A stretch of 64,000 nt of DNA from Rhodospirillaceae bacterium (GTDB taxonomy: Bacteria > Pseudomonadota > Alphaproteobacteria > GCA-2731375). The position numbers and the translations under genes were made by a program. The stretch lies in assembly GCA_002731375.1 (NCBI GenBank), contig PCBT01000054.1:61804-125803 (forward strand), read 5' to 3'. Positions 7,305 to 55,563 of this stretch are shown piece by piece. The notes under the pieces were generated by a model. It worked only from the letters and a program-made list of their open reading frames with translations. It ran no database searches and had not been told where the DNA came from. Position 1 is the stretch's first letter. The number at the start of each line of letters is the position of its first letter.

Positions 7305-8291
7305 GTGGCCAGTAAACAGCAATATACGCTGAAGAATGCAATCCATTGTTCCGGTGTGGCACTGCATCGCGGCATTAAGGTCGCCATGTGTCTACGTCCC
7401 GCGCTGGCGGATACGGGCATTGTTTTTCACCGTACCGATCTTCACACCGCAATGGAAACGCCGGCGACGGTGGCCACTGATGCAGACCTACCGGCGCGCT
7501 GGGATACGGTCAGCGATACGGTCATGTCGACGACGGTACAAAATGATGCCGGTATAAAAGTCGCCACGATCGAACATTTGATGGCCGCGCTCGCCGGTTG
7601 CGGTATCGACAATGTCCGGGTGGAATTGGATGGCCCGGAAGTTCCCATCATGGATGGCTCCTCCGCGCCGTTTGTATTCCTGATCGAATGCGCCGGCCTG
7701 CAGCTGCAACAAGCCTGCCGCCGCTCTGTCCGGGTTCTGCGCCGGGTCGAGATCGAGGATGGCGACCGCCGTGCCGCGCTGTTGCCCTCGAATGGTTTCA
7801 CTGTTGCTCTTGAGATTGATTTCGACAGCCCCGCGATCACCGAGAAAGCGGGTTATTTCGACCTGCACAATGGCGGCTTCAAACGGGATATCTGCCGCGC
7901 CCGGACCTTTGGCTTCGAGCGCGAGGTCAGCCGTCTGATGGAACTTGGTCTAGGCCAGGGCGGTTCCCTGGACAATGTCGTGGTGGTTGGCCAGGACGAC
8001 GAAATCATGAACGAAGGCGGTCTGCGCTATGGCGACGAATTCATCCGCCACAAAGTGCTGGATTGTGTCGGCGATCTTTACCTCGCTGGCGGACCGATCC
8101 TGGGCCATTTCGCGGGTCAGCGCACTGGCCATACCTCGAACAATCAAATTCTACGCAAGCTGTTCTCCGACCCCGCCAATTGGGAATACACCCATGATGT
8201 GCCGCAGCCTTCCATGGCTCCGATTCAGGCCTGGGCACGGCCCATGGCTGCCATGGGCCGTGACGATACGGTTGTCGCTGTGACGGCATAG
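7305..8291 (+). CDS. lpxC: UDP-3-O-acyl-N-acetylglucosamine deacetylase
   Basis: Zinc deacetylase that catalyses the committed step of lipid A synthesis, implying a Gram-negative LPS outer membrane. The family N-terminus (YTLKNAIHCSGVALHRG) begins shortly after GTG 7305, preceded by the purine-rich GATAGAAGA; a longer form from GTG 7260 is possible. Zinc and catalytic motifs are visible: IEHLMAALAG (first zinc His), HKVLDCVGDLYL (second zinc His and Asp) and the general-acid His in AGQRTGHTSNN. The 328 residues match the family length. It ends the dcw cluster. Confidence 0.95.
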   Translation: MASKQQYTLKNAIHCSGVALHRGIKVAMCLRPALADTGIVFHRTDLHTAMETPATVATDADLPARWDTVSDTVMSTTVQNDAGIKVATIEHLMAALAGCGIDNVRVELDGPEVPIMDGSSAPFVFLIECAGLQLQQACRRSVRVLRRVEIEDGDRRAALLPSNGFTVALEIDFDSPAITEKAGYFDLHNGGFKRDICRARTFGFEREVSRLMELGLGQGGSLDNVVVVGQDDEIMNEGGLRYGDEFIRHKVLDCVGDLYLAGGPILGHFAGQRTGHTSNNQILRKLFSDPANWEYTHDVPQPSMAPIQAWARPMAAMGRDDTVVAVTA

Positions 8292-8421
8292 AACACTTCC
8301 GCGCTTTACTGGCCACGGTTATTATTATCTCCGATCCGTATCTCGGGTCAGGCTGGAATGGGCCCATGCCGGTTTGCCTCTCGCCATGAATATTTGTCCT
8401 TAATCCGACTAGGAGTTTCCC

Positions 8422-8979
8422 TTGCCTTTAAGTGATCCGGCGCCGCGCACCCTCTCGCACACGCGTAATCTTGAACTGAAAGCCTACGAGCGCCAGGACG
8501 GCCTGTGGGACATCGAAGGTCATATTACCGACGTCAAGGAAGACGACTATTCCATGCTGGATAGCGAGCGCTCGGCGGACCAGCCGGTGCACGATATGTG
8601 GTTACGCCTGACCGTCGATATGGATTTGGTGGTGCGTGCGGCCGAGGCCCAGATGGACGTGGGCGCCCATGGTCCCTGTCACCTCGCTGCACCGAACTAT
8701 AGCCGCCTGGAAGGCTTGAAAATGGGGCCGGGCTGGAACCGCGCCATCCGCGAACGCTTGGGCGGGGTCGTCGGCTGTACCCACCTGAACGAGATGCTGG
8801 CGCAAATGGCGACGACCGCCATGCAGTCTTTGTTCGAAGTGGTGGAAAACATGGAAGACAAGGGCGACGGCAAACTTTTCCTTAGCCCCGGTTTGCGCAA
8901 TTCATGCTACGCCTATGCCCTGAACAGCACCTATGTGCGCGACTATTTTCCGGATTACTACCAGGCCGACATGCCCTGA
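8422..8979 (+). CDS. DUF2889 family protein
   Basis: A conserved proteobacterial protein of unknown function, 185 residues long, soluble by eye. Recognisable family features are RQDGLWDIEGHITDVKEDDY near the N-terminus, HDMWLRLTVDMDLVV in the middle and GCTHLNEMLAQMATTAMQ towards the end. The start is TTG 8422, set by a clear AGGAG six bases upstream. It stands alone between lpxC and the convergent ubiG; the 130-bp gap before it shows no gene. Confidence 0.82.
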   Translation: MPLSDPAPRTLSHTRNLELKAYERQDGLWDIEGHITDVKEDDYSMLDSERSADQPVHDMWLRLTVDMDLVVRAAEAQMDVGAHGPCHLAAPNYSRLEGLKMGPGWNRAIRERLGGVVGCTHLNEMLAQMATTAMQSLFEVVENMEDKGDGKLFLSPGLRNSCYAYALNSTYVRDYFPDYYQADMP

Positions 8980-9047
8980 AGTCAAGGGCCGGTTACGCCA
9001 CGGCGCCAATGCTTGTCCCGGCTATTCCTGATTTTTGTCTTGGCCGC

Positions 9048-9794
9048 CTATGGTGGCGCTGGCCGAACCGCATAGGCCAGATAGTTCACTCCGGCATCCC
9101 TGGACAGGCGCCATTCGTCTTGGCGGGGCCAATAGCGTATGCCGGTGACGTTGCGCAACTCGGCGCCGGCGCGGCGTAGGTGTCGGCCCAGTTCGGCGGG
9201 TTTGCGGAAACGGCTCCAGTCATGGGTGCCCGTAGGCAGCCAGCGCAGGACATATTCCGCGCCTAAAATAGCCGTCAGATAGGAGCGCGGCGTGCGGTTC
9301 AGGGTCGCCAGCAGCAGCGCGCCGCTTGGCCGGGTCAATTCGACCAGGGTCGCCATGAAGCCGGCTACATCGGCTACATGCTCGATCACCTCCATGGAGA
9401 CGATGGCGTCGAATTGTGCTCCCGTGGCCGCCAGTTCTTCTGCCGCTTCGGCGCGGTAATCCACTGCCACCCCTACCGCGCTTGCGTGCGCCTTGGCGGC
9501 GGCGATATTTTCCTCGCCGGCATCAATGCCGGTAATCATGGCGCCCATGCGCGCGAATGGTTCCGACAGCAGCCCGCCGCCACAACCCACATCCAGCAAT
9601 TTTAGGCCCGTTAGGGGCCGGGGAGAGGCGCTGTCGAGATCAAAATGGCTGCACAATCTGTCCCGGCTGTATTGCAGGCGGGGTGGGTTCAGGCGGTGCA
9701 GGGGCGCCATGGCGCCGTTCGTATCCCACCAATCGGCTGCCATTCGGGTAAAGCGGTCAATTTCGCCTGGGTCTATGCTGGCTGCCTGGGCCAT
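9048..9794 (-). CDS. ubiG: bifunctional ubiquinone O-methyltransferase UbiG
   Basis: SAM-dependent O-methyltransferase acting twice in ubiquinone biosynthesis. The 248 residues carry the UbiG N-terminus (DPGEIDRFTRMAADWWD), the SAM-binding motif I LLDVGCGGGLLSEPFARMG, the post-motif GIDAGEENI, and the family segments SMEVIEHV and LLATLNRTPRSYL. The C-terminal YLAYAVRP closes the fold. It is convergent with DUF2889 and divergent from the small gene at 9903; ubiG next to lysC is common alphaproteobacterial synteny. It implies a respiratory quinone system. Confidence 0.96.
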   Translation of the reverse strand: MAQAASIDPGEIDRFTRMAADWWDTNGAMAPLHRLNPPRLQYSRDRLCSHFDLDSASPRPLTGLKLLDVGCGGGLLSEPFARMGAMITGIDAGEENIAAAKAHASAVGVAVDYRAEAAEELAATGAQFDAIVSMEVIEHVADVAGFMATLVELTRPSGALLLATLNRTPRSYLTAILGAEYVLRWLPTGTHDWSRFRKPAELGRHLRRAGAELRNVTGIRYWPRQDEWRLSRDAGVNYLAYAVRPAPP

Positions 9795-51669: not shown

Positions 51670-52581
51670 CTATATGGCGCGCCAGGCCGCATGAGCCGCG
51701 GACTTGGCATCCGCGATGGCGTGTACCACTTGACCGCCATGGTTGGTACGGGCGGCTCCGACGGCATAGAGTCCCGCCTGATCTGTCTGCATACCCGTAT
51801 CAACGATCAACCCGCCATCGTCATCCCGCGCGGCGTCTGCCGGCGCTAAGTTGGTTCGCGGCGCCAGGCCGATGAAGGGGAAGATAGCGGCAATCGATAG
51901 GGTTTCCTCGTCGCCGTTCTGTTCCGTTAGGCGCACCGCATCGACGCCGTCGCTGCCGATGATTTCCTGTACATCCGTGTTCCAGCGAAAATGCATATTG
52001 CTCAGATCGGCGGTCTGTCTGACAAACGCCGGGCGGGCCCTTGGTTTGCGCCCACGCAGGATCATGGTGACGTTGGCGCACAGTTCGGCCAGATGCAGCG
52101 CCTCTTGAAAGGCACCGTCGCCACCTCCCACCACGGCGACATCCTTGCCCTTGTAAAGTCCGCCGTCGCAAAAGGCGCATTGGGAGACACCCCGTCCGGT
52201 CAGCGCTTCTTCCCCCGGCACACCCAGGGTGCGCAACTCGGCCCCGGTGGCCAGGATGACCCGCAGGGCGGTGGCGCCGTTGCCTGGTAGGTTCCAATGG
52301 CTGCCCATGGATGCCAACTCGGTCACGGCGCCGGGCTGATAATCCACGCCGGCCTCCAGGGCTGCGCCCAACATGGTATTGACCAGATCGGCACCGGTGG
52401 CGCCTTCCGATCCCGGATGCCCATGCACGGCGGCGACATTGGTGATCAGGCCGCCCAGCCGGCCGTCATCGAATAGCGCGGTCTTCAGGCCGCAGTGGGC
52501 GGCCTCGGTCGCGGCGGCCAGGCCAGCGATGCCGGCGCCAATGACGGCCACTTGGTGAGTGGTTCGGGGCGCACGGGCCAT
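51670..52581 (-). CDS. thioredoxin-reductase-like FAD oxidoreductase
   Basis: Flavoprotein of 303 residues in the thioredoxin reductase fold. FAD site VIGAGIAGLAAA (14-25), redox disulfide CAFC (135-138) followed by DGGLYKGKDVAVVGGGDGAF (NAD(P)H site), and C-terminal FAD contact near LYAVGA. A bona fide C-x2-C supports electron transfer to a partner thiol or selenol. The ATG directly abuts the stop of the preceding gene, and that gene overlaps the proposed selenoprotein. It is therefore the natural candidate reductase for that protein (inference). Confidence 0.9.
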   Translation of the reverse strand: MARAPRTTHQVAVIGAGIAGLAAATEAAHCGLKTALFDDGRLGGLITNVAAVHGHPGSEGATGADLVNTMLGAALEAGVDYQPGAVTELASMGSHWNLPGNGATALRVILATGAELRTLGVPGEEALTGRGVSQCAFCDGGLYKGKDVAVVGGGDGAFQEALHLAELCANVTMILRGRKPRARPAFVRQTADLSNMHFRWNTDVQEIIGSDGVDAVRLTEQNGDEETLSIAAIFPFIGLAPRTNLAPADAARDDDGGLIVDTGMQTDQAGLYAVGAARTNHGGQVVHAIADAKSAAHAAWRAI

Positions 52582-53790
52582 CTAGTTTTCCGTATCTGGT
52601 GACCAGCCCTGGGGCAGGTCGACTTTCTTGGCAATGCGGCAACTGGGAAAGCCCCAGGTGGGCATATAGGCACATTGAGGTATGGGAATATCGCCGCCCG
52701 CGACGATAACCGTTATGTCCTCGGGTTTTTCCACCGCCGGGACCGCGCCGTTGGCGAGCGCCGCCCTGACCCACCGGGGCGCCTTGGTCTGGCTGGCCAG
52801 CCGCGAGGGTATCCAGGATTTTTCAAAATCCGCCGCCGGCATATGACTGTTTTCGTGCAGATAGGCCTTAATGTCGGCTTTGGATTTGCCCTCGTCCGCC
52901 AACAGCTTTGCCACGTAGGGGGCGACGATGACGGCCACCGCACCGCCGTGCAGACGGGAAAAGGAGGACGTGGCGGATGCCATGACGGATGCCAGATCAT
53001 CCAGGCCGCCGGTCACGTTGACCACGCTTTCGGCCCTTTGCACCACCAGAACATCGTCTTCCGACGCGAAACCCAGTTCCTCGCGCAGGCTTTCCCAGGG
53101 GTTGAATTCCTCGTCCTCGGCCAGGCACAGGGTATAGCGGCCCGGCTGCCCCAGTCCGGCGAAGGCGACGGCTGCTGGCCAACCGCCGCCCAGATTGTGC
53201 ATGATCAACCGCACGGCCCGGCCAATGGCGGCATTGGCCCGCCAGCCCGGACCCAGGGCGCCAAAGCGGCTGTTCATATGCATGGCCTTGGCGGCCGGTC
53301 CCGACAGCATTAGTAACGGCGCGACATTCTCGTCCGTGGTCTGAACGCCGCGCAGGTTGAACTCCGGTTCCAAAAGAGCCTGCGCGGCGGCTAGCACGAA
53401 CGGTAGATGGCTGTCCTCGCAACCGGCCATGACCGCGTTGATGGCGACCTTTTCCACCGTCACCAGGCCCTGTAGGGGCTGCGCCTCACCCAGCACTGTG
53501 TTGCGTGGCTGTCCGGCCCCGCGTAGCATGGCATCCACCCGTGCCATGGTGGGGGGCACGATTGGCAGGCCGTCGGTCCAGCCCCGGCGGTAAAACATCT
53601 CGTTCACCTGGCCGTCCGCATTGGGCCCGCGTACCACCTCGACCCGTTGTCGGGGAAAGGCGGCAACTTGGGTTAGCCGTTCCAGCAAGCCCTGTTCGTT
53701 GGCTCGGCTATGCAGGGTATCGTCAATCCATTCGCCCGATGCCCGCTGTCCCGTGGGCAGCAGTATCCACAGAGATTGCTTTTCACTCAC
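52582..53790 (-). CDS. paralogue of the C-terminal domain of the UGSC selenoprotein
   Basis: A 402-residue protein of unknown function. From about residue 60 on it parallels the second half of the preceding selenoprotein: MFYRRGWTDGLPIVPPT (66-81), VEKVAINAVMAGCEDSHLP, then GRAVRLIMHNLGGGWPA aligned with VGRWWRLYLRNVAG, and a later domain with GGAVAVIVAPYVAKLL. GTG 53790 overlaps the upstream TGA stop (GTGA), fixing a coupled start; an ATG at 53817 is less likely. It has an N-terminal part (residues 1-55) but no U/C-G-S-C motif. It is likely a partner subunit. Confidence 0.8.
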   Translation of the reverse strand: MSEKQSLWILLPTGQRASGEWIDDTLHSRANEQGLLERLTQVAAFPRQRVEVVRGPNADGQVNEMFYRRGWTDGLPIVPPTMARVDAMLRGAGQPRNTVLGEAQPLQGLVTVEKVAINAVMAGCEDSHLPFVLAAAQALLEPEFNLRGVQTTDENVAPLLMLSGPAAKAMHMNSRFGALGPGWRANAAIGRAVRLIMHNLGGGWPAAVAFAGLGQPGRYTLCLAEDEEFNPWESLREELGFASEDDVLVVQRAESVVNVTGGLDDLASVMASATSSFSRLHGGAVAVIVAPYVAKLLADEGKSKADIKAYLHENSHMPAADFEKSWIPSRLASQTKAPRWVRAALANGAVPAVEKPEDITVIVAGGDIPIPQCAYMPTWGFPSCRIAKKVDLPQGWSPDTEN

Positions 53791-55517
53791 CCCGCACCGG
53801 CCAACTTGTTTTTCCAATCATTCGGCAAACGGATCGCCCGTGCCGTGGGAAAGCCTAGAATGCCGTTGTGCGAGAACACCTGGGCGTTGGTGCGCCCAGG
53901 GTCGCCACTGACGACGATCTGAATATCCATCGGATCGCAGACGATAGGCACCAGGCGGTCGGGGTCCTTGGACTCGCCATAAAGCTCATTGGCTTTGCCC
54001 AGCTGCGCCAGTTCGAACATGGAGCGGCCACCGGAATAGAAATTGGTGAACTCGACGATATATTGCTCGAACTTCCAGGCCGGGATGCGGGCGTTCTCGA
54101 ACAGCCACTGGCGCACGTCATCCTTGGACCAGCTGGCCTTGGCCATGGTTTCGGCCAGGATGGGGGAGAGCACCAGCAAGGGCGTATAGCTGCCGTCCGC
54201 CATGCCAACCGTAAAGATCAACTGCCAGCCGGACTGGGAGATCAGGGCATCAGCCAGATAGGGCAGCATATCCTCGGGCTTTTGCCCGAATACCGAAGCG
54301 ATGACATCACCCCCCGTGAAGCGCGAGATGGTGACCACGTTGTCGCCGCGGGCGTGGCCGAAATCCGCTGCATGAGGCGGCCAGTCGATCCTGGCCAGGG
54401 CGTCTTCATTCTCGGCCAGGACTACGCGCCAGGTATTGCCGAAGGTGCCCTTATCGTTCTGATGCAGGATGAAGCCCGCAACATTGCGCAGATACAGCCG
54501 CCACCAGCGACCCACGGTGGTGTTGGCCATGAAGCCGTCACGCAAGGCACCCTGTTCGTAGTTGAACTCCAGATCCTTGATGATCGGCCCATTGATTGTG
54601 ATCAGGGTTTCCGCACCCGGCGTATTGCCGGAATGCTCCACGCCATAGCCGGGGTCGGCCATGGCCTCGGCCAAGGCAATCAGCACTGGCATGTATTGCG
54701 GCTTGCAGCCCGCCATGACGCCATTGACGGCGACGTTCCAGACCGTGGCTTCACGATTGTCGGGCAGCAGCTTGCCGATCACATGCTCTGCTGGCAGATC
54801 GGTGAAGGCCAGAAAGCTTCCGATCTTGGCCCTTGTTGGCGGCACGATTGGCAGGCCGTCGGACCAGCCGTTTTCATAGAAGAACCGATTGATCTCGTCG
54901 AAACTGCCCTCTATCACTATTTCCTGTGGACCCGGCTCCGGGATCATCACGGCAGCGGGTTGCGCCGCCGTCAGGTTCTCGATCACCGCCTTGACGGTGA
55001 CGGACGTTAGATTGTTGCGCAGTTCATTGTCGGTCTGTGTATCCACATGTCCCGGAACCTTGGCCATGGGTAGATTGGGCAGGCCTAGACCCACGGCAGT
55101 GGTCGCGCCCTGGCCCAAGAAGCCATCGCAGACTAGGGAGGATGATGGCACTCCGGCGGCTTCGGCGGCGGCTGAGGCCCGCAACACGGCGGGCGTACAG
55201 CTGCCTCAACAGCCCATGCCCGAGACGATGGCATCAACCTTGTGCTCGGCCAGAGTATCGGGCAGATCGGCGATGATCTGGCCTTCCCGGGGGCCATGGG
55301 TGGAGCCAAAGATGGTGTAGCCGACGAAATTCATGTTGGGATAGGCGGCTGAAAGCTCGGCCTCCAGAATGGGAAAGATCTCGTCGCCGCGGAATAGATA
55401 GTCCCACATGAAGGCGACGGTCTTGCCCTCCAGGGTATCCAGGCGCGGCGCCAGGGGCGCGATTTCCACGGTTTTCTCTCCGCGCGGCCATAGCGCAGAG
55501 TAGGTTTCCTCGCTCAT
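53787..55517 (-). CDS. UGSC-type selenoprotein with in-frame UGA (Sec104)
   Basis: GGAGGTG lies five bases before ATG 55517. The frame runs 103 codons to TGA at 55206-55208, then continues open in the same frame to TGA at 53787-53789, giving 576 residues if UGA is read as Sec. Context is GMGC-U104-GSC107-TPAVLRA, a redox-like C-U-x-x-C. Domain 1 (1-185) is UGSC-like; domain 2 (from about 198) starts near GWSDGLPIVPPT (217-228) and recurs in the next gene. A SECIS-like hairpin follows the UGA. As far as I recall, NCBI uses the name UGSC family (seleno)protein. Function is unknown. The fallback is a nonsense-broken gene. Confidence 0.87.
55173..55208 (-). promoter_or_regulatory. candidate bacterial SECIS element
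   Basis: Read on the mRNA from the UGA: GCCCGC and GCGGGC form a 6-bp upper stem around a 6-base loop CGUGUU. The loop starts 17 bases after the UGA and has G at its second position, as the bacterial SECIS consensus asks. UGAG at the base can pair with CUCA, closing the structure over 36 bases. Folding was done by eye. Confidence 0.7.
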
Positions 55518-55563
55518 ATTCACCTCCAATTTTTCATGCTTGGGGCTAGTCTAGCGTAGTTTT

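What the first reader, a model, noticed from the sequence alone, without database searches (positions are those of the whole stretch)
53787..55517. UGSC-type selenoprotein with in-frame UGA and a C-terminal domain duplicated next door
Seen: two open stretches (codons 1-103 and 105-576) are in the same frame and separated only by TGA at 55206-55208, inside C-U-G-S-C. The start has a strong GGAGG. Coding signal continues to a GTGA overlap with the next gene, so the downstream part is under selection as one protein. Known: redox selenoproteins place Sec in U-x-x-C motifs, and a UGSC family (seleno)protein is named in NCBI annotation as far as I recall. Inference: the fused form, with a large domain shared with the neighbour, is a multidomain redox enzyme of unknown reaction.
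Basis: partly seen in the sequence, partly recalled or inferred. Interest (0 to 1): 0.93.

Follow-up and report, generated by a model that had tools for sequence, protein, structure and literature searches.

The report
Fused UGSC selenoprotein with reductase operon
A marine alphaproteobacterium reads an in-frame UGA "stop" codon as selenocysteine to make a two-domain redox enzyme of unknown substrate, encoded in one operon with a sister copy of its second domain and a thioredoxin-reductase-like flavoprotein, which suggests what this puzzling selenoprotein family does and makes it testable.

Summary
The genome has selA, selB, selD (itself Sec-coded) and a UCA-anticodon tRNA-Sec. All 28 fusion orthologues examined have TGA at codon 104. 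A fused homologue in a genome without selA has TGC there. Purifying selection is the same on both sides of the TGA. A SECIS-type hairpin follows it, with 5 codons from 104 to 113 frozen at every base.

It belongs to the UGSC family (PF24696), and a UGSC/"Unknown_1" fusion was reported from ocean metagenomes in 2008, so the kind is known. New here: (1) the C-terminal domain ("U1", about 320 aa, no Pfam, NCBIfam or PDB match) is an obligate partner: the same 38 of 385 alphaproteobacterial genomes carry UGSC and U1, almost always adjacent. (2) In the fused clade the operon is fusion, second U1, thioredoxin-reductase-like FAD protein (CAxC), and TrxR-like genes recur beside UGSC/U1 in an archaeon and in Variovorax. 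(3) The UGSC profile matches GrdB/PrdB (glycine/proline reductase) with the Sec sites aligned, rather than a thioredoxin fold.

Best explanation: an NADPH-driven, Sec-dependent small-molecule reductase; substrate unknown.

The parts
53787..55517 (-). Fused UGSC-U1 selenoprotein gene (576 aa, Sec at residue 104), TGA stop
   Evidence: PF24696 at 98.5 bits, cut-off 25; 28 orthologues
55206..55208 (-). In-frame UGA, codon 104, read as selenocysteine (C-U-G-S-C)
   Evidence: TGA in 28/28 fusion orthologues; TGC in fused L112
55177..55194 (-). Apical stem-loop of the bacterial-type SECIS element (GCCCGC-CGUGUU-GCGGGC); the whole folded element is 55164-55208
   Evidence: z = -2.73; loop at +20; codons 109, 110, 111 and 113 frozen in 28/28
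55523..55527 (-). Shine-Dalgarno GGAGG of the fusion gene
   Evidence: Sequence
54942..55517 (-). UGSC domain (residues 1-192), predicted Rossmann/flavodoxin-like alpha/beta with Sec between strand 96-102 and helix 107-120
53877..54914 (-). U1 domain, alpha copy ('Unknown_1' type), fused to UGSC
   Evidence: no Pfam, NCBIfam or PDB match
52582..53790 (-). U1 beta gene (GTG start inside the GTGA overlap); U1 domain at 52663-53628
51670..52581 (-). Thioredoxin-reductase-like FAD/NAD(P)H protein with SQCAFCD active site; start codon abuts the stop of the U1 beta gene
   Evidence: TIGR01292 at 229.9 bits, below its cut-off of 343; conserved next to the fusion; CAxC, GxGxAG and GGGDxA kept

Best explanation
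The locus encodes an NADPH-driven, selenocysteine-dependent small-molecule reductase built from three translationally coupled genes. SHOWN by computation: UGA 104 is read as Sec (SECIS-type hairpin, full Sec machinery, Cys at the site in a relative without selA). The protein is a UGSC domain fused to a U1 domain. U1 is the obligate genomic partner of UGSC. A second U1 and a CAxC TrxR-like flavoprotein share the operon in orthologues. The UGSC profile matches the Sec-bearing part of GrdB/PrdB with the U-x-x-C motifs aligned. INFERRED: the Sec selenolate, at the start of a helix after a beta strand, attacks a substrate held between the UGSC and U1 domains, as in glycine and D-proline reductases. 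The product leaves and a selenenylsulfide forms between Sec104 and Cys103 or Cys107. The TrxR-like protein reduces it with NAD(P)H through its CAxC pair. The alpha and beta U1 copies form a heteromer around the active site. The substrate is unknown; gene neighbours in relatives (transporters, CoA-transferases, dehydrogenases) point to catabolism of small organic molecules. The paralogous UGSC/U1 pairs of the same genome would be versions for other substrates.
For: Sec decoding: machinery; 28/28 TGA; 5 of the 8 fully identical codons among 282 fall in codons 104-113, hypergeometric P about 1e-6; hairpin loop with GU at +20 to +22 in 62 of 68 sites while stem sequences differ between clades; dN/dS on both sides; Cys homologues; G326 and G363, Cys-only, lack selA; 34 of 35 genomes with a TGA-UGSC have selA, the exception being 77% complete. 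Partnership: identical sets of 38/385 genomes, Fisher P about 2e-53; adjacency. TrxR-like partner. GrdB/PrdB relation: (hhalign probability 89.6%, P 1.9e-6, score 45 against at most 15.7 in 40 column shuffles; UxxC aligned on UxxC). Not a thioredoxin fold: (pLDDT 83.5, pTM 0.87).
Against: No biochemistry. P0001 has no PF07355 hit in Pfam, so the GrdB/PrdB link is remote and rests on about 68 aligned columns. Glycine and proline reductases need a pyruvoyl subunit; no such subunit was found here. U1 has no recognisable fold relative. TrxR-like genes were not found near the unfused UGSC/U1 pairs of this genome, so those would use another donor. Neighbours of UGSC/U1 loci vary widely, so the substrate cannot be read from context.
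Confidence: 0.5

Rival explanations
1. A general thiol/selenol antioxidant enzyme: the vicinal GCUG and UGSC motif reduces peroxides or protein disulfides, recycled by the TrxR-like partner, with U1 as scaffold.
For: U-x-x-C and C-U motifs with a TrxR-like partner also fit thiol oxidoreductases; the literature groups UGSC with Trx-fold redox selenoproteins (PMC2398784; PMC13188914).
Against: The model is Rossmann/flavodoxin-like, not Trx-fold. The profile relation is to substrate reductases. The obligate 320-aa partner and the seven-fold paralogy fit substrate diversity better than general defence.
Confidence: 0.25
2. UGSC/U1 is a selenol-based binding or transfer protein for a metal, metalloid or sulfur/selenium species, and the TrxR-like partner resets it.
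For: Conserved vicinal C-U plus C107 could bind soft metals; TrxR-like reductases also serve metal detoxification (general knowledge).
Against: No metal-resistance genes among the families recurring near UGSC/U1 loci or in the annotated plasmid loci read.
Confidence: 0.15
3. UGA is a true stop (pseudogene, sequencing error, or two separate proteins), and the downstream part is translated on its own.
For: A GTG start exists downstream of the UGA (466-aa ORF), and annotation pipelines would call it; on the Acidovorax sp. T1 plasmid the annotated CDS ends at the UGA.
Against: 28/28 orthologues have TGA and none has TAA or TAG; Cys at the site in fused L112; frozen SECIS codons; full Sec machinery.
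Confidence: 0.02

Closest known systems
UGSC-containing (seleno)protein family (PF24696; NF041046); Zhang and Gladyshev 2008, PMC2398784
   Same: Same domain and U-x-x-C site; PF24696 at 98.5 bits against a cut-off of 25. A fusion of UGSC with 'Unknown_1' was already noted there from GOS metagenomes.
   Different: The window protein scores only 45 bits against the NF041046 cut-off of 125. It has C-U-G-S-C-T-P-A-V in place of the common D-U-G-S-C-x-x-C-x-H-D, and carries a second U1 gene and a TrxR-like gene in its operon.
Glycine reductase selenoprotein B (GrdB, PF07355) and D-proline reductase PrdB
   Same: The U-x-x-C at the end of a strand and start of a helix, followed by E-x-x-G-[IV]-P, aligns with UGSC at hhalign probability 89.6%. 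Glycine reductase also draws on thioredoxin-type electrons (general knowledge; PMC13188914).
   Different: No direct PF07355 hit for the window protein; no GrdA, GrdC or pyruvoyl GrdE/PrdA partner; the partner is U1, without a known fold; the setting is a marine alphaproteobacterium rather than a Stickland-fermenting anaerobe.
Thioredoxin reductase (TIGR01292)
   Same: FAD and NAD(P) motifs and the CAxCD active site at residues 135-138; 229.9 bits.
   Different: Below the TIGR01292 equivalog cut-off of 343.45; linked to the UGSC/U1 genes rather than to a thioredoxin.

Membership tests
UGSC selenoprotein family (PF24696) | Pfam gathering score reached over the whole domain | tested here: met
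   98.5 bits vs 25; residues 9-183 on profile 3-171/172
UGSC selenoprotein family (NF041046 equivalog) | NCBIfam curated cut-off of 125 bits | tested here: not met
   45.3 bits; a divergent, fused subfamily
Selenoprotein (SelB/SECIS-decoded UGA) | selA, selB, selD and tRNA-Sec in the genome | tested here: met
   tRNA-Sec with anticodon UCA
Selenoprotein (SelB/SECIS-decoded UGA) | Hairpin just 3' of the UGA with a G/U-bearing loop, conserved beyond the amino acids | tested here: met
   no Rfam family matches it
Selenoprotein (SelB/SECIS-decoded UGA) | Cys at the Sec position in homologues, especially where Sec machinery is absent | tested here: met
   L112 TGC, L113 TGC, L114/L115 TGT; G326 and G363 lack selA
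Selenoprotein (SelB/SECIS-decoded UGA) | Sec present in the protein | not testable with these tools
   Needs 75Se labelling or mass spectrometry
GrdB/PrdB (PF07355) | PF07355 gathering score | tested here: not met
   No PF07355 hit for P0001 at E <= 0.1
GrdB/PrdB (PF07355) | Remote profile similarity with U-x-x-C sites superposed | tested here: met
   hhalign P = 1.9e-6, probability 89.6%; shuffles score at most 15.7 against 45
GrdB/PrdB (PF07355) | Pyruvoyl-forming partner subunit | tested here: inconclusive
   U1 has no Pfam or NCBIfam match; cleavage cannot be tested here
Thioredoxin-fold selenoproteins | Trx fold (beta-alpha-beta-alpha-beta-beta-alpha with CxxC/UxxC at the first helix) | tested here: not met
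   Predicted order is beta-alpha repeated five times, Sec after the third strand
Thioredoxin reductase (third gene) | FAD and NAD(P) motifs and redox-active CxxC | tested here: met
   GxGxAG, GGGDxA and C135-A-x-C138 conserved in 17 sequences; below the TIGR01292 cut-off

The most novel reading that the evidence does not exclude
UGSC plus U1 is a widespread, undescribed class of selenocysteine-dependent substrate reductases, an aerobic counterpart of glycine/proline reductase. Its catalytic subunit is remotely GrdB/PrdB-like, its partner U1 has a fold without known relatives, and in the fused clade electrons come from a dedicated TrxR-like protein. Paralogous pairs within one genome handle different substrates.
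Probability: 0.35. Interest if true: 0.8.

Novelty: new variant of a known kind. Interest (0 to 1): 0.52.

Why it matters
UGSC proteins are among the most abundant selenoproteins in aquatic metagenomes (255 sequences in GOS, PMC2398784) and their role was still listed as uncharacterised in a 2026 review (PMC13188914). The operon names concrete partners: U1 alpha and beta, and the TrxR-like protein. It also suggests a mechanism class, Sec-based substrate reduction, that can be tested by reconstitution. It would also explain why one marine alphaproteobacterium keeps seven UGSC selenoproteins, and it gives U1, a large unannotated protein family, its first functional context.

Tried and rejected
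Viral contigs gave no relatives. PDB sequence profiles gave nothing significant for UGSC (best E 0.031, a designed P-loop protein) or for U1. Foldseek against the PDB had no hit at E <= 0.001. A single-sequence model of the UGSC domain alone was poor (pLDDT 51) and was not used. Rfam had no SECIS match. A first hhalign run with badly trimmed PrdB-like sequences was weak (probability 31%) and was repeated with cleaned sequences; reversed, TrxR and U1 controls gave P of 0.2-0.75. Gene-neighbourhood families around UGSC/U1 pairs gave no common substrate. Considered and rejected: stop codon/pseudogene, sequencing error, thioredoxin fold.

Full report
Observation. The reading frame at 55517..53787 on the minus strand is as described: 103 codons, TGA at 55206-55208, 472 codons, TGA. 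GGAGG precedes the ATG, and the stop overlaps the next gene as GTGA. The next gene (53790..52582) is a paralogue of the C-terminal domain (29% identical), and its stop is followed at once by the ATG of a third gene (52581..51670). The three genes look translationally coupled.

The UGA is read as selenocysteine. The same genome (4.55 Mb draft in 115 contigs) has selA (580 bits), selB (426 bits) next to it on one contig, selD (381 bits) which itself carries a Sec UGA in GGGUGCK, and tRNA-Sec with anticodon UCA. Nineteen orthologues from other assemblies, and further ones from class relatives, make 28 fusion genes with the window's own, all with TGA at this codon. Purifying selection is alike before and after it. 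Among 282 codons with conserved amino acids only 8 are identical in every sequence, and 5 of these are codons 104, 109, 110, 111 and 113 (P about 1e-6). They form a hairpin with loop CGUGNU beginning 20 nt after the U of UGA (z -2.73). Across 68 distinct UGSC genes a hairpin with a GU-containing loop sits at +20 to +22 in 62, while the stem sequences differ between clades. Cys stands at the site in fused L112 (TGC), L113 (TGC) and L114/L115 (TGT). Of the genomes with only Cys forms, two lack selA (G326, G363) and one has it (G246); 34 of the 35 genomes with a UGA form have selA, the exception being 77% complete.

What the parts are. The N-terminal domain is UGSC (PF24696, 98.5 bits), although it fails the NF041046 equivalog cut-off. 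The C-terminal domain, here called U1, matches nothing in Pfam, NCBIfam or the PDB. Zhang and Gladyshev (PMC2398784) reported a UGSC fusion to 'Unknown_1'; I take U1 to be that domain, but their Figure S1A could not be read here. In 385 alphaproteobacterial genomes UGSC occurs in 38 and U1 in exactly the same 38, and the two genes are adjacent in nearly every locus examined (L083/L133 is an exception). The window's genome has seven UGSC genes, all with UGA. A tree groups the fused forms in one clade, which also takes in an unfused haloarchaeal pair; a Vibrio fusion lies outside it and is independent.

The third gene is a thioredoxin-reductase-like flavoprotein with CAxC, FAD and NAD(P) motifs. 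It follows or neighbours the fusion and the second U1 in about 20 loci at 41-87% identity. TrxR-like genes with CxxC also lie beside UGSC/U1 genes in Haloterrigena (an archaeon) and in two Variovorax plasmids. This recurrence across domains of life is the best evidence for the electron donor.

Fold and distant kinship. AlphaFold (pLDDT 83.5, pTM 0.87) gives the UGSC domain five beta-alpha units with Sec between strand 96-102 and helix 107-120. This is a Rossmann/flavodoxin-like order, not the Trx fold suggested in the literature. Foldseek found no confident PDB match. A search with PF07355 (GrdB) found short PrdB-like proteins, several with in-frame UGA in V-P-V-U-P-x-C, in this and related genomes. 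Profile comparison aligns UGSC with them at probability 89.6%, P 1.9e-6, score 45 against at most 15.7 in 40 shuffles, with U-G-S-C on U-P-x-C and the following E-x-x-G-I-P in register. GrdB is the substrate-binding Sec subunit of glycine reductase and PrdB its homologue in D-proline reductase (PMC13188914).

Mechanism. From these facts I infer a Sec-dependent reductase. Sec104 acts on a small molecule at the UGSC/U1 interface and is then re-reduced from a selenenylsulfide (with Cys103 or Cys107) by the TrxR-like protein using NAD(P)H. The UGSC, U1 and TrxR-like associations are shown; the chemistry, the electron path and the substrate are inferred. Confidence that this is a true selenoprotein is about 0.97; that it is a TrxR-recycled substrate reductase about 0.5.

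Novelty. The family and a fusion of it are known. The obligate U1 partnership, the three-gene operon, the TrxR-like link across archaea and bacteria, and the GrdB/PrdB relation were not found in the papers searched. I rate it a new variant of a known kind.

Noticed in passing
Own genome G000: C73, C12, C5, C52, C42, C26 and C54 (loci L030-L036): Seven UGSC selenoprotein genes with in-frame UGA in one genome, nearly all beside a U1 gene; an unusually UGSC-rich selenoproteome.
   Followed up: yes
Own genome C46:36447-36806 (L141) and six further PF07355 matches: Seven short PrdB/GrdB-like matches, at least one with in-frame UGA (VPVUPNC), in a bacterium that is probably not a Stickland fermenter; role unknown.
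   Followed up: partly
Own genome C46:47029-47955 (L018): SelD is itself Sec-coded (GGGUGCK). A second SelD-like match at C53 lies in a 756-aa frame and may be a fusion.
   Followed up: partly
L160 (NZ_CP021650.1, Acidovorax sp. T1 plasmid p2-T1) 7929-8477: UGSC gene with in-frame UGA on an IncP plasmid near IS1071; the annotated CDS stops at the UGA (mis-annotation). The neighbours look catabolic, with a tricarboxylate transporter protein and an isocitrate lyase/PEP mutase family protein.
   Followed up: partly
L166 (Vibrio europaeus plasmid) 7992-9677: Fused UGSC-U1 protein with Met at the Sec position (LADMGTS), possibly a redox-dead homologue.
   Followed up: no
window:55564-55998 (-): F420H2-dependent quinone reductase-like / deazaflavin nitroreductase family protein upstream of the operon; absent from most orthologous loci.
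   Followed up: partly
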